Source of the DNA: an uncultured Exiguobacterium sp. | GTDB lineage: Bacteria; Bacillota; Bacilli; Exiguobacteriales; Exiguobacteriaceae | Reading direction: 5' to 3' | Assembly: GCA_913775715.1 (NCBI GenBank) | Contig: CAJYMC010000004.1 | Location: 1-64,000, forward strand | Length of the DNA: 64,000 nucleotides | Shown here: positions 846-32,123 of the stretch, piece by piece | Position numbering within the stretch: position 1 is the first letter of the stretch | How the letters are laid out: every line of letters starts with the position of its first letter | Notes under the pieces: generated by a model | Told to the model about the DNA's origin: nothing | Databases searched by the model: none | Seen by the model: the letters and a program-made list of their open reading frames with translations, nothing else | Position numbers and translations under genes: made by a program

Positions 846-894
846 ATATCGTAACTAATAATTATTCTCAAGAAACATTTTCACATAAGAGGTC

Positions 895-23833: not shown

Positions 23834-23871
23834 AAACGGCTTTGGAGCCCTGCTCCGAAGCCGTTTTTTTA
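23834..23871 (+). terminator. Intrinsic terminator after the YbjN gene
   Basis: AACGGCTTTGGAG pairs with CTCCGAAGCCGTT, followed by a long T run, just ahead of the Fur-controlled promoter. Confidence 0.9.
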
Positions 23872-23883
23872 TTTAAAGTTCAA

Positions 23884-23912
23884 TTGACAATGAGAATTAT
23901 TCTCGATATAGT
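23884..23912 (+). promoter_or_regulatory. Sigma-A promoter with Fur box in the spacer
   Basis: Perfect -35 TTGACA (23884-23889), 17-bp spacer and -10 TATAGT (23907-23912). The spacer contains TGAGAAT-T-ATTCTCG (23891-23905), a 7-1-7 Fur box one substitution per half from the Bacillus consensus TGATAATNATTATCA. Iron-loaded Fur would sit between -35 and -10. Confidence 0.92.
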
Positions 23913-23972
23913 TAGATTTGTGAAAACGACTACATGACGATCACGTATTACTTATTCTGGGGGAATTCTGAT

Positions 23973-25157
23973 ATGAAAAAACGTTTAAAAGTAGCCTCGA
24001 TCTTCATGGTGGCAGGCATCTTGGCTGCCTGCGGTTCGAATGAAACGGATACGTCTGCACCGAAAAAAGAGAAAACGGAACAGTCGACCGAAACGAAGTC
24101 ACCGGATGCAGGAATCGCTGCGACGACACTGACAGATGAATTGACGATCTTCAGCTCAATCAAAACAGAACTCGACAAAGCAAAAGAAGGACAAGCGATC
24201 GATTGGAAGATGGTCACGACAAGTTATGAATCGAAACTCAAAGGTGGTGTCGAGACGACAGCACCAGAAATCGAACAAGTCATCCAGTCTGCTTTAGCAG
24301 GTGTGGAAGCAAAGGATCTCGATGAGAATATCGCTCGTCAACTCGTTGATAAAGGTCTACAATCGTATTTCTATAAATTACAAAAAGCAACGCAAGCAAA
24401 AGCTGAAGAAGCACTCGTCGCTGGTAAACCGGAAGCTGCAACGGAAGCACTCAAGGACGTGGAAGCGATGGCGAAGACTGTCTTCATTCCGACAGCTGAA
24501 AAACGGGACGCGAGCTACGGCTTTAAAAACGAAGACGCCATCGCTCAAGCGATCACATCCGGTCTTGCAGCGCAGCAAGAAGCCATCGACGCAAAAGAGC
24601 TCGGGGACTTCAACGTCGCAAAACAAGTGACGGATAAATCGATTTATCGTTCCTTCTATTTAGCTGCCCTCGGCTACGCACAAAAAATCGAGGATGGCGT
24701 CAAAGCCGGTACGGACGAAAAAGAATTGCAGATGGAGCAAGCAGAAGGATATGGTTTCCTCCTTGCGATCGAAGAATCATTAGCAGGCGGAGATGAAGAG
24801 GCTGTCAAAATGCTGAAAGAGCGCTATGATTTTTCAAAAACAAAACCAGCTGACGTCTCTTACAAGGAAATCGAAGAATTGTTCGCAAACGCGCTGACGG
24901 AAAAAGTCGACGGTTATCATGAAGAGGCACAAGAAGCGATCGAGAAGAAAGACGTCGATACGGCACGTGCAGAAGCAATGGAAGCGAACATGTTCGTTGT
25001 TGCGATGAAACCGACGCTTGAGAATCGTCTCGGCAAGGACAAAGCAGCACAAGTCGCGAAAGACGCAAACGAATGGTTCGCACTCGTCGAAAAAGGTGAC
25101 GTCAAGGCTGAAACGACAGGCGAACGGATCACAGATGCACTCGAACCACTTAACTAA
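23973..25157 (+). CDS. Iron-regulated lipoprotein with internal repeat
   Basis: A 394-residue lipoprotein (lipobox GILAAC, Cys20) with an acidic, Lys/Glu-rich linker and an all-helical remainder. Two segments, about 130-185 and 225-280, share the pattern V-DK-..-S-FY-..-A-KAE/KIED-..-AE, pointing to an internal duplication. It resembles, in style, the helical extracytoplasmic domains found with FTR1 permeases rather than imelysin/EfeO, whose HxxE motif I do not see. As the first gene of the Fur-controlled operon it is probably an iron-binding or iron-delivering surface protein. ATG at 23973 follows GGGGG. Confidence 0.8.
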   Translation: MKKRLKVASIFMVAGILAACGSNETDTSAPKKEKTEQSTETKSPDAGIAATTLTDELTIFSSIKTELDKAKEGQAIDWKMVTTSYESKLKGGVETTAPEIEQVIQSALAGVEAKDLDENIARQLVDKGLQSYFYKLQKATQAKAEEALVAGKPEAATEALKDVEAMAKTVFIPTAEKRDASYGFKNEDAIAQAITSGLAAQQEAIDAKELGDFNVAKQVTDKSIYRSFYLAALGYAQKIEDGVKAGTDEKELQMEQAEGYGFLLAIEESLAGGDEEAVKMLKERYDFSKTKPADVSYKEIEELFANALTEKVDGYHEEAQEAIEKKDVDTARAEAMEANMFVVAMKPTLENRLGKDKAAQVAKDANEWFALVEKGDVKAETTGERITDALEPLN

Positions 25158-25183
25158 GAAGGAAATGGAAACGGAGGGATAAG

Positions 25184-26095
25184 ATGAATATCGGAATCAC
25201 AGGAGGCGCCGGCTTCATTGGCGCCGCCCTCGCCCTCCGGCTTCAGCAGCATCATACCGTCCACGTCCTTGATGCTTTCACGGACTACTATGATGTCCAG
25301 TTAAAAGAAGAACGAGCAGCTGAATTAAGACGTGCCGGCGTTATCGTTACGACGGGTGACGTTCATCACGATCTCGACGCCTGGATGGAGACATCGTTCG
25401 ATGCTGTCTTCCATCTCGCAGCTCTTCCAGGTGTTCCCCGTTCGCTCGAAGAACCGCACCACTATATTCGTGAGGACATCGACATGACGGTGACCTTGTT
25501 AGAAGCCGCAAAAAGACATCGCATGCCGCATGTCTTTTTCGCGTCTTCTTCTTCCGTTTACGGGGAACAGACTGGTCCACTGAAAGAGGAACAGGCAACG
25601 GGACACGTCGCCAGCCCTTACGCGGCAGCCAAGTATAGTGCCGAAAGCTTTTGTCATGCTTATGCTCATTTATATGATGTAAATGTGACGCTGTTTCGCT
25701 TCTTTACGGTCTATGGTCCATCGGGTCGTCCCGATATGGCGCTGTTTCGTTTCATCGAACAGGCATTACGCGGAGAGGCACTCACCGTCTTCGGTGATCC
25801 GATCCGTGACTTCACGTATATCGATGACATCACTCGCGGAATGGAACAGGCGTTGCTGGCTCGTGCCGTCGGGACGTATAACCTCGGCGCGAATCAGCCG
25901 GTCTCCGTCCGCACGCTAGCTGAACGGATCGGTCAACGGTTTAATGTGCCTGTGCATACTCAGGCTGCACGACACGGAGACGTGACGATGACATGGAGTG
26001 ATACGACGGCAGCACAGGAAGCCTTCGGTTACCAACCGTCAATCGAGATTGATGTTGGACTGGAGCAGGTGATCGCGTGGCATCAAAATCGCTGA
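25184..26095 (+). CDS. NAD-dependent sugar-nucleotide epimerase, UDP-glucuronate epimerase-like
   Basis: A 303-residue extended SDR with the GITGGAGFIGAAL NAD-binding motif, serine run plus SSVYGE, and the catalytic YAAAK. The early 'DAFTDYYDVQLKEERAAEL' stretch resembles UDP-glucuronate 4-epimerases, so a UDP-uronic acid is a plausible substrate, though UDP-Glc/Gal cannot be excluded. It supplies an activated sugar to the operon's glycosyltransferases. Starts 26 nt after the lipoprotein gene. Confidence 0.88.
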   Translation: MNIGITGGAGFIGAALALRLQQHHTVHVLDAFTDYYDVQLKEERAAELRRAGVIVTTGDVHHDLDAWMETSFDAVFHLAALPGVPRSLEEPHHYIREDIDMTVTLLEAAKRHRMPHVFFASSSSVYGEQTGPLKEEQATGHVASPYAAAKYSAESFCHAYAHLYDVNVTLFRFFTVYGPSGRPDMALFRFIEQALRGEALTVFGDPIRDFTYIDDITRGMEQALLARAVGTYNLGANQPVSVRTLAERIGQRFNVPVHTQAARHGDVTMTWSDTTAAQEAFGYQPSIEIDVGLEQVIAWHQNR

Positions 26096-26931
26096 TTCGA
26101 ACGTTTCTGTATCTGACGCTTACCGGACTTGTCATCTTTTTACTGCTCCGTTTTTTCTTGGAGTTACCGGTCTCGTATCGGTACATTGAAGCTTTATTCA
26201 AGAGTCCCTGGACGATCCTTGCGACCTTGACGTATGCGATCGCCTTTTATTTACGCGCGGTCGCCTGGCGCCGCGCCGACTCAAAACGTGCACCGACTGC
26301 TGTATACCTGTCGAGCCTGTATCTCGGACTGACGATCAATCATCTCTCACCGGTCAAACTGGGAGAGATGATCCGACTCGTGACGGCGAGAGCCGTCGGA
26401 AGTCCATGGAAACAGACGAGCGCGATCTTCGTCTTACAACGAAGTATTGACTTGATCGTTCTGTGTACCTTCATTTTGATCGGTTGGTTGTTTCACCCGA
26501 TCGTTTTGCTCGTCGCGCTCCTTGCGACCGGATTATTGCTCGTGTTACGTCGACATGTCCCGCATCTCCCATCACTCGCTCTGTTCGGAACGCTCGCTTG
26601 GACCGTCGAGGCACTTGCCGTCTTTCTCCTCTTGCATGGAGCCGGTGTCGATGTGTCCTTTCCGACGACCTTGATCGCGATGAGTGCCGGTGTCCTGTCT
26701 GGTGTGATTCAGTTCACGCCGGGTGGACTCGGTACGTACGAACTCGCAATGGGTACGGTGTTACGGCAAGCCGGTGTTGCTCATGCGTACGATGTTGCCT
26801 TGATGACGCACTTCTTTAAATATGCCTTTGCTTTTCTCATCCCGCTGTACGTTCTCATTCGGCATCCGGCTACACTTCGGTTGTTGGTTCGTCAGCTCAA
26901 ATACACTGATTGGAAAGGAGGAAGACGATGA
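26077..26931 (+). CDS. Lysylphosphatidylglycerol synthase TM-domain (UPF0104) flippase-like protein
   Basis: A 284-residue polytopic protein with about seven hydrophobic spans and the family motifs SPVKLGEMIR and TPGGLGTYE. Family members include the flippase half of MprF and the archaeal AglD-associated proteins; in a glycosylation operon a lipid-linked sugar flippase is the natural guess. It has no lysyl-transferase domain. GTG at 26077 overlaps the epimerase end by 19 nt with AGGTG ahead. Confidence 0.88.
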   Translation: MASKSLIRTFLYLTLTGLVIFLLLRFFLELPVSYRYIEALFKSPWTILATLTYAIAFYLRAVAWRRADSKRAPTAVYLSSLYLGLTINHLSPVKLGEMIRLVTARAVGSPWKQTSAIFVLQRSIDLIVLCTFILIGWLFHPIVLLVALLATGLLLVLRRHVPHLPSLALFGTLAWTVEALAVFLLLHGAGVDVSFPTTLIAMSAGVLSGVIQFTPGGLGTYELAMGTVLRQAGVAHAYDVALMTHFFKYAFAFLIPLYVLIRHPATLRLLVRQLKYTDWKGGRR

Positions 26932-28364
26932 AAAGTGCTTCTCGCTTTGAAAAAGTCGCAGCACGCGCCTGGAACTTACTCAATGAAGGAAAACCCTTTA
27001 CACCTATTTTTACGATCGGCGTCTTCTTGACGTACGTCTTATGGACGCAAATGCCTCTCGCAGAAGCTGGTCTTGGTTTCATCGTGACGCTTCCTTTATT
27101 CATTTTGCTTTGGCGTTATGATTTCCCGTTATTTTTACGAAATTACCTTTGGATTCCGGTCATCGTTTGGCTGTTCCTTCGGGGTACAAATGTAGATTAT
27201 TTACCTTTGTTCGCCTATGGCACAGGTCTCTATTTCTTCTTTACGATTTTTTTCTGGGGGACGATCTATTATCATCTCCGGATCGGAACGCGCTGGACGA
27301 ACTTCACGCGCTTTTGGAAACTCGTTCTGAAAAATAGTGATTCGACAAGTGGTAACGCGCAGGAGCAACTGCCTAAAGTTGCTCTGTTGCTCATGTACTG
27401 GTGGACGGCAAGTGACGCGTCGACACTCGACATGACGTTCATCTGGTTCCCAATTGGTCTATTCGTCTTTGCATGGATCCTGCATCACTACCTGTTCGAC
27501 TGGAAACCGAAGTTGCCCGAGGCAATGACGGCAGATGCCGATCTTCCGACTTCAGAAAAAGTCTATGTCCTGATTGTCGACGGGATGCGTAAAGATCGCT
27601 ACATGGCAGCAAACACACCGTTCCTCGAACGATTGCGTCAGGAAGGAACGGAATATACGAATATGGAGACGGTTTACCCTGCCCGGACCGTCGTCTGCTT
27701 CAGTTCGATGTTCACCGGTGCTCGCCCAAAAGATCATGGCATTCATTCGAACATGGTCTGGAATACGACCGGCGTTAAAACGGATACCGTCTTCGATCGC
27801 CTCCGTGCCGTTGACAAGTCAGGAAAAATCCTTGGTATCGCACACCTTGTCGATGCGTTCGGTTCAACCGACGTACGGACCGTCACGGCGGTCATGCATA
27901 ACGATGTCGCGGATCGAAATATCGTAGAGCGTGCCAAACAAATCGTCCATGAAGAAGATCCGGATTTGCTCGCGATTCAGTTGATCGGAACGGATCAAAC
28001 AGGACACAGTCGAGGTACCCTCTATTCCGAGTATGTCGAAAAAATCGAGGAAGCGGATGCGCTCCTTGCCGAGTTTTGTGAGGAACTCGATCGCCTTGGT
28101 AAACTCGAGGATGCGACATTCATCGTCATGGCAGATCACGGTCAAGCGGACGGAATCGGTGGACACGGTCACTTGGATGAAGGCGAACGGTTCGTTCCGT
28201 TCTGGATGTATGGTAAGAACGTTCATGCCGGTCTAAAAGTCGATACGCACCGTCATATCCTGTCACTCGGACCAACGATCACCAAAGTCCTAGGGGCAGA
28301 CATCCCGCACGATAGCCGTGGTGTACTATTGACAGAAGCGTTCAAGGAGGCGAAGTCTAAATGA
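26928..28364 (+). CDS. Membrane-anchored alkaline-phosphatase-superfamily phosphodiesterase
   Basis: A 478-residue protein. The first about 190 residues hold five to six hydrophobic spans; the rest is a type I phosphodiesterase/nucleotide pyrophosphatase domain with a metal site in LIVDGMRKDRYM, nucleophile Thr in YPARTVVCFSSMFTG, KDHGIHSN, QLIGTDQTGHSRG and MADHGQADGIGGHGHLDEG. Such enzymes cleave or transfer phosphodiesters, including phosphoglycerol or phosphoethanolamine groups. The substrate here is unknown. ATGA overlaps with both neighbours show tight coupling. Confidence 0.87.
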   Translation: MKSASRFEKVAARAWNLLNEGKPFTPIFTIGVFLTYVLWTQMPLAEAGLGFIVTLPLFILLWRYDFPLFLRNYLWIPVIVWLFLRGTNVDYLPLFAYGTGLYFFFTIFFWGTIYYHLRIGTRWTNFTRFWKLVLKNSDSTSGNAQEQLPKVALLLMYWWTASDASTLDMTFIWFPIGLFVFAWILHHYLFDWKPKLPEAMTADADLPTSEKVYVLIVDGMRKDRYMAANTPFLERLRQEGTEYTNMETVYPARTVVCFSSMFTGARPKDHGIHSNMVWNTTGVKTDTVFDRLRAVDKSGKILGIAHLVDAFGSTDVRTVTAVMHNDVADRNIVERAKQIVHEEDPDLLAIQLIGTDQTGHSRGTLYSEYVEKIEEADALLAEFCEELDRLGKLEDATFIVMADHGQADGIGGHGHLDEGERFVPFWMYGKNVHAGLKVDTHRHILSLGPTITKVLGADIPHDSRGVLLTEAFKEAKSK

Positions 28365-29089
28365 AGATCATCGTCTTTTTACCGGCACACAACGAGGAAG
28401 CGTCGCTCCCGCTCGTCTTAAAGCGAATCCCGGACATGATCGACGGTATTCCGGTCGAGACCCTCGTCATCGACGACGGCTCAGTGGATGCGACGAGTAC
28501 GATCGCGCGTCAACACGGCGCACATGTCTATCGGTTCGAACAAAATCAAGGACTCGGCGCTGCAGTTCGGGAAGGACTCCGCCAGTCCTACGAACTCGGC
28601 GCGGATGTTGCTGTCATGATTGATGCCGATAACGAATATCCTGCCGATCAAATTCCGGATATCGTCCGACCGATCTTACACGATCAGGCCGACTATGTAT
28701 TCGGTTCTCGTTTCCTCGGTACCGTCGACGGGATGCGGCTCTATCGCTATATCGGCAATCATGTCTTTACGTGGTTGCAATGCATCTTGCTGAAACGTAG
28801 AATTCATGACGGTCAAAGCGGGATGCGTGCTTTTTCACGCGCAGCTTGTCACCATGCTGAGATCATTCACGATTATAACTATGCTCAAGTCTTAACCCTC
28901 AATCTCGTCCGAAAAGGCTTCCGCCTGCACGAAGTTCCGATTCGTTATCGGGTCCGGGAAACAGGAAAGTCCTTTATCCGTCTGAATTATGTCCAACGTG
29001 TTCTCCCGGCGATTTACCGGGAGTGGCGACGACCGATCACACAGCTTAGCGTTGAAAAACGTATGGAACGAAAGGAGCACCTCGGATGA
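28361..29089 (+). CDS. Family 2 glycosyltransferase, polyprenyl-phosphate sugar synthase-like
   Basis: A 242-residue GT-A protein: FLPAHNEEASLP start, DDGSVDAT, metal motif IDADNEYPADQIP, GSRFLG and HDGQSGMRAFSR. This is the single-domain dolichyl-phosphate-mannose-synthase type, without membrane tail, which charges a polyprenyl phosphate with a sugar on the cytoplasmic side. It fits as the step before the flippase. Overlaps both neighbours by 4 nt. Confidence 0.9.
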   Translation: MKIIVFLPAHNEEASLPLVLKRIPDMIDGIPVETLVIDDGSVDATSTIARQHGAHVYRFEQNQGLGAAVREGLRQSYELGADVAVMIDADNEYPADQIPDIVRPILHDQADYVFGSRFLGTVDGMRLYRYIGNHVFTWLQCILLKRRIHDGQSGMRAFSRAACHHAEIIHDYNYAQVLTLNLVRKGFRLHEVPIRYRVRETGKSFIRLNYVQRVLPAIYREWRRPITQLSVEKRMERKEHLG

Positions 29090-29820
29090 AACGCCTTCTT
29101 TTGCTACCGCTCCTCCTACTCTCACTGTTCGTGAGCACTTCCACGGTTTCCGCTTATAGTTACGGAGACCCCGGAAAGGAAGCTTTTGCGGAAGCCTATA
29201 AACAATTTGAAGAACAACTCGATGCCAAGGATTACGCGCTTGCGAAAGAGACGCTTACCGCCTATGATAAAGAATTCAAACTGTACTTCCCGGAAGCGAA
29301 AGCGAAGATCGACACGGCGCTTGAACAAGAAGATGCAGAGGCTGCAAAACAAGCGTACCGCGTCGCTCTCCGTCAAAATATCGAACGTCGCCTGCACTTT
29401 GCTGAAGAGCAGTTCGAGGACTTCGGTCAAGCGAAACTCTTACTTGCGAAAGCCCGCGGGACATACGATGTGCTCGCACCTTACGTCAAGGAAAGCAAGG
29501 ATGCACAAACATCCGATGACGTGTATACTGCATTTGATGAATCATTAAAGGCACTCGGAAACCCTGGTCTGTTTGGGGTCGGAAAAAAAGCGAGTGATGA
29601 AGCATCCTTCAAGAAAAACATTACGATGATCGAAGATACGTTGACGCCTCTCTTCGTCCTTCCGGGTGAAGAAAAAACAGGCGTTTTCACGGAAGAAGAC
29701 TCCTTCCTCGGTCAAACGTTCGGAACAGACGCGATCTGGAAATTGATTGCGTTCGGACTCGTCATCGTCCTCATCGTCATCGTCGTCATTGGTCAATGGA
29801 AGAAGAAACGCCGCTCATAA
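29086..29820 (+). CDS. Secreted, C-terminally tethered helical protein linked to FTR1
   Basis: A 244-residue protein with signal peptide (1-23, cleavage after VSA), a long helical extracellular part rich in Lys/Glu/Ala, and a C-terminal membrane helix (about 215-237) with a KKKRRS tail. Its extracytoplasmic domain resembles the N-terminal extensions of some large FTR1 proteins, here split off as its own gene 12 nt before the permease. Probably an iron-binding partner or regulator of FTR1. Start overlaps the GT2 gene. Confidence 0.82.
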   Translation: MKRLLLLPLLLLSLFVSTSTVSAYSYGDPGKEAFAEAYKQFEEQLDAKDYALAKETLTAYDKEFKLYFPEAKAKIDTALEQEDAEAAKQAYRVALRQNIERRLHFAEEQFEDFGQAKLLLAKARGTYDVLAPYVKESKDAQTSDDVYTAFDESLKALGNPGLFGVGKKASDEASFKKNITMIEDTLTPLFVLPGEEKTGVFTEEDSFLGQTFGTDAIWKLIAFGLVIVLIVIVVIGQWKKKRRS

Positions 29821-29832
29821 GGAGGAAGACAG

Positions 29833-30750
29833 ATGGATTTTCAAGCGTTTTTGATTACGCTTCGGGAGTGTCTCGAGGCTGTTCTCATCGTTGGGTTGAT
29901 CTTAGGTTATCTCGATCGATTGAACGCTCCACAATATAAAAAGTGGGTCTACGCAGGTGTCGGGTTGGCACTTCTCGCTAGCCTTGGTGTCGCGTTCCTG
30001 TTCCAAGTCGTCTTTACGAGTTTTGCGAGCTTCGGAAGCGACACGTATCTCCGTCTCGGCATCATGATGGTCTCCGTCCTGCTCTTGACACACATGGTCC
30101 TCTGGATGGGCAAGGAAGCGAAAGAGAATCAACAAGCCTCCCAAGCGAAGGTCGCTGCTGCCGTTTCGACGGGTAGTGCCATCACGATGATCATCCACTC
30201 CTTCCTCGTCATCGTTCGAGAAGGAATTGAGACCGTCTTCTTCTTCGCTGCCATCTCAGGTGGAGAAATCGAAAAAGTCCTGACGAGTTATGGTGCGGTT
30301 TCCGGTCTGTTACTCGCCTTGATCTTCGGATACTTATTTGTTTCCGGCTCAATGAAGATTCCCGTCAAACGCTTCTTCCAAGTGACGGGTGTGCTCATTC
30401 TATTCATCGCAGCGGGCATGCTCGTCCAGACGATTGGCCGCTTCCAAGATCTTGGTTTGCTCGGTAGCCTTTTGATGAATGCTGACGGTACACCAGCTGC
30501 TCTATATAACATCGTCGGCTTCATGCCGGAGCACTACATCGATCAGGTGCAATACTTGCGGGATACCGGGAATTCGACGTTGATCAGCGGGCAAATCGGA
30601 ACGTTCATGGGCGCGATGTTCGGATACAGCCATAACCCATCGCTTGAACAAGTCGTCGCTTGGTGGGGCTACTTCGCCTTTGCCGGTTGGATGTTACTCC
30701 GCCAAAACAAACCATCGAAGTCATCGAAGTCCTTACAGGAGGTTTCTTGA
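29833..30750 (+). CDS. FTR1 family iron permease (EfeU-like)
   Basis: A 305-residue seven-helix permease. The two REXXE iron motifs are RECLE (11-15; Cys replaces the usual Gly) and REGIE (129-133). In EfeUOB systems ferrous iron is oxidised during uptake by EfeB, but no peroxidase gene is present in this operon. Fur control matches an iron role. Its TGA overlaps the TTG of the next gene, and an intrinsic terminator begins 8 nt later. Confidence 0.94.
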   Translation: MDFQAFLITLRECLEAVLIVGLILGYLDRLNAPQYKKWVYAGVGLALLASLGVAFLFQVVFTSFASFGSDTYLRLGIMMVSVLLLTHMVLWMGKEAKENQQASQAKVAAAVSTGSAITMIIHSFLVIVREGIETVFFFAAISGGEIEKVLTSYGAVSGLLLALIFGYLFVSGSMKIPVKRFFQVTGVLILFIAAGMLVQTIGRFQDLGLLGSLLMNADGTPAALYNIVGFMPEHYIDQVQYLRDTGNSTLISGQIGTFMGAMFGYSHNPSLEQVVAWWGYFAFAGWMLLRQNKPSKSSKSLQEVS

Positions 30751-32123
30751 CCGTCCGAAGCGATCGTTCACGTCCGCGTGGACGATCGCTTTTTTGGATC
30801 ACGTTGCTATTCATCGGTGGCTGGATTGGTTTACGGATCATTTACGTCAGTCCCTTCATCGCGAGCTACGATATTGCGAACTTCACGCTCGCTGTGACCG
30901 ATTATGATCTGGCTGATTTACGTCCGCACTTTCCGGGTTATCCCTTTTTCATCTTATTTGCCACCCTGTTTCTGCCACTGATGATACCTGTCAAAGCGCT
31001 CGGACTCGTCTCCACACTCGGACTGGCAAGTGCCCTCTTGCCACTTTACTCGCTTTTCCGTCGTCATGCGTATGATACGACTCGGCTGATTGCTGCCTTT
31101 ACCGTTCTCTCCACTGCATCACTCGTGACGTTCGCTGCAACCGGGATGTCGGATGGACTCGCCCTCGGACTACTCGTCTGGTACGGCTGGAGCATCGAAC
31201 GCGCACGGCATCAGACTCGTCGCTGGCTCCCGTATCTTCTGTTTGGTTTACTGATGGCGACTCGCCTGTCCTATGCGCCGTTTGGTTTCATGTTGCTTGT
31301 CCTGTTGTGGCAGGTACGAAAGGATTACTGGCAACTCTTATCCGAGTGCGCCCTTCTTGTTCTGGCGCAACTGGCTTGGTTGCTACCGGTCGCTTTTTCT
31401 GTCGGTGGGCCCTATTCGTTTCTTCAATTATCACTCCGCTTCGTCAGTGGTCATTTTTCCGATTGGGGTGGTTCTGCTCAAACCGATGACGCTTCTATCG
31501 TTCAACGATTTGTTCAGACGCTTCAGCAACTCTTCTGGCATGGAATCGGTTATGGAACGTGGATTGGACTAGTGTCTGGACTGCTACTATTCTTACGCAG
31601 ACGTTGGACGGTCGATGTCGTTTGGGGAGCGACGGCTGGACTCTATTTCGTTTGGGTCTGGCTCGGACAAAATATCGATAAACCCCGTCACATCTTACCG
31701 CTTGTCCTATTGCTACTCATCTGGTCAATCCGTCAGCTTCCGTTGCGGATGTATCTGCCGTTTTTAGTCGTTCAGTTGACGATCGGTAGCATTGCGTTGA
31801 ACGAACAAGCAACGCGTCCTCCGGCGACGATTGAACTAGCGCGTTACGTAGCGACTCTTCCAATCGGCGCGACAGTCTTTACCGACGAGGAAGCTCGCCA
31901 ATTCCAGTCCGAACGTCCGGATGCCGCGATCGTTCCGATCGGTTCGGTCAGTAAATGGAACGCAGAACCAAAATCCGTTCAGAGTTACGTAACTGGTCGA
32001 TTGCTCGAGCGCCTCCACGCTCAAGGCGTGCGACCAAACGTCAAACAAATCATTCGCTTCACGAGTGATACCCGATACGAACCGGAAGATGCGCAAGCGA
32101 TGCTGTATCAACTAACGCCTTGA
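30747..32123 (+). CDS. GT-C-like multispanning glycosyltransferase
   Basis: A 458-residue protein with a basic N-terminus, ten to eleven hydrophobic spans and a soluble C-terminal part of about 95 residues. The first loop after helix 1 contains TDYDLADLRPHFPGYPFF, whose acidic residues and H-x-PGYP resemble GT-C transferases that use polyprenyl-phosphate sugars outside the membrane. TTG at 30747 overlaps the FTR1 stop (TTGA) and has AGGAGG 4 nt ahead. The first codons encode an intrinsic terminator hairpin, so expression probably depends on read-through. Codons near the start could also be skipped by a later start such as TTG at about 30803. Confidence 0.75.
   Translation: MTVRSDRSRPRGRSLFWITLLFIGGWIGLRIIYVSPFIASYDIANFTLAVTDYDLADLRPHFPGYPFFILFATLFLPLMIPVKALGLVSTLGLASALLPLYSLFRRHAYDTTRLIAAFTVLSTASLVTFAATGMSDGLALGLLVWYGWSIERARHQTRRWLPYLLFGLLMATRLSYAPFGFMLLVLLWQVRKDYWQLLSECALLVLAQLAWLLPVAFSVGGPYSFLQLSLRFVSGHFSDWGGSAQTDDASIVQRFVQTLQQLFWHGIGYGTWIGLVSGLLLFLRRRWTVDVVWGATAGLYFVWVWLGQNIDKPRHILPLVLLLLIWSIRQLPLRMYLPFLVVQLTIGSIALNEQATRPPATIELARYVATLPIGATVFTDEEARQFQSERPDAAIVPIGSVSKWNAEPKSVQSYVTGRLLERLHAQGVRPNVKQIIRFTSDTRYEPEDAQAMLYQLTP
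30758..30795 (+). terminator. Intrinsic terminator/attenuator inside the GT-C gene start
   Basis: AAGCGATCGT (30758-30767) pairs with ACGATCGCTT (30782-30791); T-G wobble and CACG/CGTG extend it to a 15-bp stem with a TCCG loop, followed by TTTT. A ribosome initiating at 30747 would cover the left arm, which would favour read-through. Confidence 0.8.

What the first reader, a model, noticed from the sequence alone, without database searches (positions are those of the whole stretch)
23884..32123. Fur-controlled operon joining FTR1 iron uptake to a complete lipid-linked glycosylation route
Seen: one Fur/sigma-A promoter, then eight same-strand genes with mostly 4-nt overlaps or short gaps. Known families: sugar-nucleotide epimerase, polyprenyl-phosphate GT2, UPF0104 flippase-like protein, GT-C-like transferase, membrane phosphodiesterase, lipoprotein, tethered secreted protein and FTR1. 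Inference: iron starvation turns on synthesis of a sugar (possibly uronic acid) on a lipid carrier, its flipping and transfer outside, onto the lipoprotein, tethered protein or a glycolipid, which would bind iron for the permease. EfeB and EfeO are absent, so this is not a standard EfeUOB system.
Basis: partly seen in the sequence, partly recalled or inferred. Interest (0 to 1): 0.88.

Follow-up and report, generated by a model that had tools for sequence, protein, structure and literature searches.

The report
Iron importer with built-in sugar-coating machinery
Many Bacillus-like bacteria keep an iron importer, surface proteins distantly related to algal iron-uptake proteins, and enzymes for attaching an acidic sugar outside the cell together under what looks like one iron switch, which suggests that sugar-coating the cell surface is part of how they collect iron.

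Summary
Eight co-directional genes (23973-32123) follow one sigma-A-type promoter with a Fur-like box; that block is nearly invariant in 17 of 17 genus loci, window included. In 398 genomes of the class, this-type FTR1, GT2 and phosphodiesterase occur in exactly the same 54. The 37 positives outside the genus all carry the tethered helical protein and the GT-C transferase too, in several orders, sometimes unlinked. In 8 genomes with split sets, 19 of 21 separate units have a Fur-like box of 12+ of 14 in the standard upstream window; the other two only inside over-long ORF calls. The sugar is most likely a uronic acid: the SDR keeps UDP-glucuronate 4-epimerase residues, and a UDP-glucose-dehydrogenase-type gene adjoins the cluster in 9 of 37 genomes. 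The transferase is GT-C: PMT/TMEM260-like by family profiles, ArnT-like by fold. The lipoprotein is distantly FEA1-related and homologous to the tethered protein. Best reading: a Fur-controlled FTR1 importer with a dedicated lipid-linked uronic-acid pathway. Acceptor and iron role of the sugar are inferred.

The parts
23834..23866 (+). terminator-like hairpin of the upstream YbjN-like gene, sets the operon apart
23884..23912 (+). sigma-A-type promoter TTGACA-17-TATAGT
   Evidence: 11 of 12; near-invariant block in 17 of 17 genus loci
23891..23905 (+). Fur-like box TGAGAATTATTCTCG between -35 and -10
   Evidence: not significant in the window alone
23973..25157 (+). lipoprotein, all-helical by model, distantly related to FEA1-related lipoproteins
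25184..26095 (+). SDR sugar-nucleotide enzyme, most likely UDP-glucuronate 4-epimerase (UDP-GlcA to UDP-GalA)
26077..26931 (+). UPF0104/LPG_synthase_TM membrane protein, candidate flippase of the lipid-linked sugar
   Evidence: PF03706 74.9 bits, cut-off 33.4; TIGR00374 33 bits, below its cut-off 43.2; role inferred
26928..28364 (+). membrane phosphodiesterase, NPP/alkaline-phosphatase superfamily, active-site motifs kept; role unknown
28361..29089 (+). GT2, dolichyl/polyprenyl-phosphate sugar synthase type
29086..29820 (+). secreted protein tethered by a C-terminal TM; homologous to part of the lipoprotein; constant partner of this FTR1
29833..30750 (+). FTR1/EfeU-type iron permease with two REXXE motifs (RECLE 11, REGIE 129)
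30747..32123 (+). GT-C transferase, family PMT_2/TMEM260-like by profiles, ArnT-like by fold

Best explanation
It is one functional unit: a Fur-repressed iron importer with its own surface-glycosylation pathway. Under iron starvation, UDP-glucuronate (from an NDP-sugar dehydrogenase encoded elsewhere in this genome, and within the cluster in some relatives) is converted by the SDR to UDP-galacturonate; the GT2 puts the uronic acid on polyprenyl phosphate; a flippase (the UPF0104 protein where present) turns it over; and the GT-C enzyme transfers it outside the membrane, most likely onto the FEA1-like tethered protein and lipoprotein that work with FTR1. These FEA1-like proteins, with the acidic sugar, would collect ferric iron and hand it to FTR1 without an EfeB-type peroxidase. 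Shown by computation: gene set, co-occurrence, shared Fur-like boxes, family assignments, uronate signature. Inferred: Fur binding, direction of flow, protein as acceptor, iron binding by protein and sugar, the phosphodiesterase's role (trimming, or adding a phosphate-linked group).
For: Identical presence of FTR1, GT2 and PDE in 54 of 398 genomes with no exception at the score gap; tethered protein in 37 of 37 outside-genus positives and 0 of 28 other genomes tested; GT-C in 37 of 37 at the fetched loci. The association survives rearrangement and unlinking; of 21 separate units in 8 split genomes, 19 have a box of 12 or more of 14 in the -250 to +115 window and two have one (11 and 13 of 14) inside over-long ORF calls, against 24 of 345 control transcription-unit starts at 11 or more and 9 at 12 or more. 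The SDR keeps the Arg185 equivalent, Thr178 equivalent, Tyr and Lys of UDP-GlcA 4-epimerase; a UDP-glucose-dehydrogenase-type gene lies within 500 bp of the cluster in 13 of 81 loci and in 9 of 37 outside genomes. GT-C: PMT_2 in 10 of 16 and TMEM260-like in 9 of 16 members; ArnT, then oligosaccharyltransferases, by fold. Lipoprotein: 18 of 19 members hit the FEA1-related model at E up to 0.01; lipoprotein-tethered protein hhalign probability 97.5%. GT-C adjoins FTR1 or the tethered protein in 35 of 37 outside genomes (orders printed); in three split genomes it stays with them while UPF0104, PDE and GT2 sit elsewhere, and in those three the tethered protein has a 78-145 residue linker rich in S, T, P and A. 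In the two genus genomes that lack seven of the genes, the lipoprotein left behind has diverged more than in sister genomes and its promoter/box has decayed.
Against: No experiment. In 2 of 5 clearly unlinked genomes the GT-C gene sits with PDE and GT2, not with the tethered protein. By fold the GT-C enzyme is nearest ArnT, whose acceptor is a lipid (acceptor recalled). SDR and UPF0104 genes are each missing from the fetched loci of 11 of 37 genomes. The FEA1 relation of the window's lipoprotein is far below the curated cut-off, and some members also hit unrelated lipoprotein models; its model matches no solved structure with confidence, and no conserved iron site was identified. Only 3 of 17 aligned tethered proteins have a long S/T/P/A linker. 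The dN/dS rise of the leftover lipoprotein (0.10-0.11) is matched by one intact but more distant pair (window-L005, 0.106, near synonymous saturation). PDE topology is ambiguous.
Confidence: 0.58

Rival explanations
1. Same coupling to iron, but the uronic acid goes onto a glycolipid or wall polymer (as in ArnT or rhizobial Rgt lipid A modification), making an acidic surface layer that concentrates ferric iron for the FEA1-like proteins and FTR1.
For: ArnT is the top fold match of the GT-C enzyme; a bactoprenyl-phosphate-GalA synthase (RgtE) and GalA transferases acting on lipid A are described (PMC7663294 passages); 14 of 17 aligned tethered proteins have no long S/T-rich region; a phosphodiesterase fits polymer or lipid modification.
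Against: Family profiles point to protein O-mannosyltransferase families; GT-C adjoins FTR1 or the tethered protein in 35 of 37 outside genomes.
Confidence: 0.27
2. The FEA1-like proteins are glycosylated, but the sugar only stabilises or positions them; it has no part in binding iron.
For: The Pgf set of Streptococcus mutans (GT2, PMT_2-type membrane protein, epimerase) is required for the modification, likely glycosylation, and protease stability of Cnm (PMC5856776 passages); the same kinds of protein are here.
Against: A dedicated, Fur-boxed set with a uronic-acid precursor route rather than a neutral sugar is more than stability needs; this is indirect.
Confidence: 0.12
3. The sugar genes are general envelope genes that merely share an operon and regulator with FTR1.
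For: Operons can group unrelated genes; the window alone cannot exclude it.
Against: Co-occurrence without exception, including unlinked genomes, and loss together.
Confidence: 0.03

Closest known systems
EfeUOB / FepABC (FTR1-type importer with M75 protein EfeO and Dyp peroxidase EfeB)
   Same: FTR1-type permease and extracytoplasmic helical partner proteins; iron-regulated operons (recalled, and in the abstract start of PMC3577903 listed)
   Different: No EfeO or EfeB here; FEA1-like partners instead; an eight-gene set with a sugar pathway. The genome carries a separate complete EfeUOB.
Pgf operon of Streptococcus mutans (PMC5856776, passages read)
   Same: GT2, PMT_2-type membrane protein and sugar epimerase in one operon acting on surface proteins
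   Different: No iron genes, no phosphodiesterase and no uronate reported in the passages read
Galacturonic-acid route to lipid A (RgtE bactoprenyl-phosphate-GalA synthase plus Rgt transferases; PMC7663294, passages read)
   Same: Polyprenyl-phosphate-linked uronic acid used outside the membrane
   Different: Acceptor there is lipopolysaccharide, absent in this Gram-positive; no link to FTR1 in the passages read
FEA1/phytotransferrin of algae (PMC7676907, passages and reference list read)
   Same: Surface iron-assimilation protein; the cited title of Allen et al. 2007 says FEA1 is expressed with FTR1 in iron-deficient Chlamydomonas; distant profile similarity
   Different: Similarity far below the curated cut-off; the algal receptor works by endocytosis; no glycosylation genes named in the passages

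Membership tests
FTR1 iron permease (PF03239) | Pfam gathering score | tested here: met
   136.7 bits against 25.3
FTR1 iron permease (PF03239) | two REXXE motifs | tested here: met
   RECLE 11, REGIE 129; 72 of 72 family members at the scanned loci have two or three [RK]EXXE
EfeU equivalog (NF041756) | curated cut-off 255 bits | tested here: not met
   174 bits
EfeUOB system | EfeO (M75) and EfeB (Dyp) genes next to FTR1 | tested here: not met
   none among the eight proteins; the genome's other FTR1 locus has both
FEA1-related lipoprotein (NF038033) | curated cut-off 250 bits | tested here: not met
   32.4 bits for the window's protein; 18 of 19 family members match at E up to 0.01, best 4.5e-13; their bit scores were not printed
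UDP-glucuronate 4-epimerase | Arg185 (carboxylate of UDP-GalA), Thr178, Tyr149, Lys153 in B. cereus numbering | tested here: met
   R182, T175, Y146, K150; Arg185 role from PMC12338863, roles of the other three recalled
UDP-glucuronate 4-epimerase | activity on UDP-GlcA | not testable with these tools
   needs enzyme assay
Protein O-mannosyltransferase type (PMT_2, TMEM260-like) | profile match | tested here: inconclusive
   10 and 9 of 16 members match; the window's own protein matches neither at E 0.01
GT-C fold | predicted fold matches solved GT-C enzymes | tested here: met
   ArnT E 9.3e-6, OST/PglB E 3e-4 to 8e-4; mean pLDDT 82.7
Fur regulon | 7-1-7 Fur-like box at the promoter, conserved among relatives | tested here: met
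   not significant in the window alone; binding not testable here
Protein O-glycosylation system (Pgf-like) | acceptor protein carries the sugar | not testable with these tools
   needs mass spectrometry

The most novel reading that the evidence does not exclude
A new class of bacterial iron uptake in which an iron-controlled, lipid-linked uronic-acid transferase coats FEA1-like (phytotransferrin-like) surface proteins, and the acidic glycan itself is part of the ferric-iron capture site that feeds FTR1.
Probability: 0.4. Interest if true: 0.92.

Novelty: new variant of a known kind. Interest (0 to 1): 0.82.

Why it matters
FTR1-type importers are known with oxidases, M75 proteins or P19-type partners (recalled); none that I know of, and none seen in the listings of the paper searches, needs a sugar-transfer pathway. 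A five-gene core (FTR1, tethered FEA1-like protein, GT2, GT-C, phosphodiesterase) present in 54 of 54 positive genomes among 398, even when scattered and separately Fur-boxed, makes a testable case that glycosylation is part of iron acquisition. It also gives a bacterial handle on FEA1-type proteins; the review read says the role of Chlamydomonas FEA1 was suggested but never actually demonstrated (PMC7676907).

Tried and rejected
Ordinary EfeUOB: rejected for this operon (no EfeO/EfeB), though present elsewhere in the genome. Tethered protein as a split-off N-terminal domain of the long EfeU: hhalign probability 3%, rejected. Tethered protein as M75/imelysin relative: 3 of 17 members hit PF09375, best E 2e-4, too weak to use. 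Lipoprotein fold: no confident PDB match. R/K-E/D-x-x-E motif counts in the lipoprotein (53 of 63 have at least one) were dropped as non-discriminating in a Glu/Lys-rich protein. PDE topology by hydropathy and charge: inconclusive. Plasmid carriage: no match at E 1e-30 in 72,556 records. A GPI-anchor-like role for PDE plus GT2 plus GT-C was considered only as an analogy from memory. Sequence searches of solved structures with the lipoprotein, tethered-protein and GT-C alignments gave no convincing match (TMEM260 for GT-C at E 0.038).

Rows dropped before the co-occurrence count: four genomes with weak phosphodiesterase hits, 32-35% identity (G106, G140, G169, G170), and five with weak FTR1 hits, 91-111 bits (G105, G112, G246, G269, G356); none of these is in the lists of the other genes. 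The cut was set after seeing the scores, at a gap (FTR1 265.9 against 111.1 bits; PDE 334.3 against 288.8; G101's PDE is in two pieces). The three class searches each report 398 genomes and I take them as the same draw; unlisted negatives were not seen one by one. Some named loci and unnamed-genome loci are the same genome fetched twice (L028/L094, L036/L095, L042/L077 and L032/L125 by equal contig length); only L042 and L094 were left out as duplicates. Genomes are related, so the Fisher value (4e-68) overstates independence. The box in L079 was found only by looking beyond the standard window (best of 2,400 bases), and an 11 of 14 match there is weak evidence; the box before the L118 lipoprotein lies at +151 of the longest ORF call.
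Full report
What is there. The window lies in a 3.06 Mb genome, 100% complete; its close relatives among the named loci are Exiguobacterium. Eight same-strand genes run from 23973 to 32123 with gaps of +26, -19, -4, -4, -4, +12 and -4 nt, behind a promoter scoring 11 of 12 at 23884-23912 that contains a Fur-like palindrome. In this window alone that box is not significant (2 hits, 3.94 expected). Across the genus, the block from TTGAC to TATAGT is invariant in 17 of 17 loci (window included) apart from three positions, while the surrounding intergenic sequence varies more.

Conservation in the genus. 17 of 19 genus genomes have this FTR1 and this phosphodiesterase, and the same two lack both. 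The eight genes are in the same order in 16 of 16 fetched genus loci besides the window (L004-L019). In the two lacking genomes the upstream gene is 99.4% identical to the window's, seven genes are gone, a 17-residue match to the GT-C C-terminus remains, and the lipoprotein is kept but only 83-85% identical (against 96.7-98.5% in the six fetched sister genomes whose upstream gene is 98.9-99.4% identical); the promoter and box have decayed. Its dN/dS to the window is 0.10-0.11 against 0.028-0.035 for three close intact copies; but an intact, more distant pair (window-L005) also gives 0.106 at near-saturated dS, so the ratio alone is weak. The lipoprotein appears to lose constraint when the rest is lost; this does not separate the role of FTR1 from that of the sugar genes. 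The sister genus (19 genomes) has no FTR1 at E 0.001 and no such phosphodiesterase at E 1e-20.

Conservation in the class. One scan of named genomes with a phosphodiesterase alignment gave 24 loci, 16 of them outside Exiguobacterium (records named Bacillus, Robertmurraya, Ectobacillus, Neobacillus, Peribacillus, Brevibacillus and a Bacillaceae bacterium). Scans of 398 class genomes with phosphodiesterase, FTR1 and GT2 each gave, at the score gap, the same 54 genomes: 17 genus and 37 others (GT2 positives span 28 of 145 genera). Four weak phosphodiesterase and five weak FTR1 hits were left out; they are in neither of the other lists. In 7 of the 37, phosphodiesterase and FTR1 are on different contigs; two of those (G059, G060) involve contig ends, five (G092, G130, G166, G195, G305) are clearly unlinked.

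The core set. In loci fetched for all 37 outside genomes, FTR1, GT-C, tethered protein, GT2 and phosphodiesterase are in 37 of 37, lipoprotein in 34, SDR in 26, UPF0104 in 26 and UDP-glucose dehydrogenase in 9. Whole-genome searches of 66 chosen genomes found the tethered protein in 37 of 37 positives plus the window genome and in 0 of 28 others, and the lipoprotein at 243 bits or more in 34 of 37, the window genome and the two remnant genomes, with 27.3 bits or less in the other 26 non-positives (absent in G249, G305, G336). Orders include lipo-SDR-UPF0104-PDE-GT2-tethered-FTR1-GTC, (UGD)-lipo-tethered-GTC-FTR1-(SDR)-PDE-GT2, FTR1-tethered-GTC-(lipo)-SDR-PDE-GT2, and split sets. GT2 adjoins PDE in 37 of 37, and GT-C adjoins FTR1 or the tethered protein in 35 of 37, all but G166 and G195.

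Fur-like boxes elsewhere. Outside the genus, the first gene of 55 of 58 scored units has a box of 11 or more of 14 within -250 to +115, and 50 of 58 one of 12 or more (my count of its rows; some genomes appear twice; the three misses are L037, cut at the contig end, L079, and the detached UPF0104 gene of L086). Of four later loci, two (L123, L125) show no box of 12 or more before the lipoprotein, only a perfect one before the tethered protein. Many Bacillaceae loci have such a second box. In eight genomes with split sets (G059, G060, G092, G130, G147, G166, G195, G305) there are 21 separate units: 19 have a box of 12 or more in the standard window; the SDR unit of G092 has 11 of 14 at +194 and the G195 lipoprotein 13 of 14 at +151 of over-long ORF calls. 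Control: 24 of 345 other transcription-unit starts in the loci reach 11 and 9 reach 12, four of those nine being divergent to a cluster gene and sharing its box; cluster unit starts, internal ones included, reach 11 in 89 of 141.

The sugar. The SDR's best solved relatives are 5u4q (named dTDP-glucose 4,6-dehydratase) and 6zl6 (named only epimerase-domain protein; that this is the B. cereus UDP-GlcA 4-epimerase is recalled, and its residue 185 is Arg as in the paper). The window's SDR keeps Arg185, which binds the UDP-GalA carboxylate (PMC12338863, passages), as R182, with T175, Y146 and K150. The motif FTVYGPxxRPDM is in 56 of 59 SDRs at the scanned loci (52 by the first pattern, four more with RPFTVYGP; loci of one genome may count twice). 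A UDP-glucose-dehydrogenase-type gene lies within 500 bp of the cluster in 13 of 81 scanned loci, none of them in the genus and two of them divergent (Pfam family checked for two). No chance rate was computed for this. NDP-sugar dehydrogenase-family genes occur in all 15 genomes tested, the window's included, so supply is plausible. GT2's nearest solved relative is dolichol-phosphate mannose synthase (E 1.2e-16); it hits the AglJ, dolichyl-phosphate hexose transferase, PpgS and PgfS models below cut-off.

The transferase. The window's GT-C protein has no useful Pfam hit of its own, but 10 of 16 family members hit PMT_2 and 9 of 16 TMEM260-like. Its AlphaFold model (pLDDT 82.7) matches ArnT (E 9.3e-6) and oligosaccharyltransferases. 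Protein and lipid acceptors are both compatible.

The iron side. FTR1 passes PF03239 and has two REXXE motifs. The lipoprotein matches the FEA1-related lipoprotein model weakly over residues 172-308 (32.4 bits, cut-off 250); 18 of 19 family members match at E up to 0.01, best 4.5e-13, while other lipoprotein models match 7 or fewer members. It is homologous to the tethered protein by profile (hhalign 97.5%, E 5.6e-12, 146 columns), with the caution that both are helical. A title cited in PMC7676907 reports FEA1 expressed with FTR1 in iron-deficient Chlamydomonas; its passages call ISIP2a a phytotransferrin and say an Ostreococcus FEA1-related protein binds iron. The lipoprotein model is all-helical (pLDDT 88.4) with no confident match. 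Anchoring varies: TM, lipid, or a Cu_amine_oxidN1 domain on one or both proteins in G130, G092 and G195, so the FEA1-like part rather than the anchor is what is kept.

The unexplained part. The phosphodiesterase is as constant as FTR1, with NPP-type motifs in 68 of 72 copies by a loose pattern (the L043 pieces fall below that count's score limit), and N-terminal membrane segments of unclear number. Its substrate is unknown.

Literature. Searches for FEA1-related lipoprotein (0 papers), Exiguobacterium with EfeU/FTR1, FTR1/Fur/glycosyltransferase/lipoprotein (20 of 26 listed), phytotransferrin/FEA1 (20 of 27 listed), FTR1/protein glycosylation/uronic acid and annotation-style names (0 papers) showed, by title and abstract start, no paper describing this set. 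Most subscription journals are not held.

Verdict. The mechanism is supported up to 'FTR1 importer with Fur-like boxes, coupled to a lipid-linked uronic-acid transfer pathway and FEA1-like surface proteins'; the acceptor and the iron role of the sugar remain inference.

Noticed in passing
G000:C7, L003 8918-12628: The window's genome has a complete standard EfeUOB set (582-aa FTR1, Dyp peroxidase with a Tat-like start by eye, M75 lipoprotein) besides the operon studied.
   Followed up: yes
L114, L115 (genomes G011, G012): Two genus genomes lack seven of the eight genes; the lipoprotein stays as a diverged leftover with a decayed promoter/box.
   Followed up: yes
L041 11558-17219: Arginine-deiminase-pathway-type genes (by eye) lie between GT2 and the tethered protein; both halves keep their own Fur-like box.
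   Followed up: partly
L076, L078, L118: FEA1-like proteins carry a Cu_amine_oxidN1 domain; its use as an anchor is a guess.
   Followed up: partly
window 856-870: Another Fur-like box (TAATAATTATTCTCA, 12 of 14); no ORF of 120 aa or more overlaps 300-1217.
   Followed up: no
L118 6925-8664 and 8762-9772: In one genome the lipoprotein-type and tethered-type genes are convergent, each with Fur-like boxes near its start, and both proteins end in Cu_amine_oxidN1 domains.
   Followed up: partly
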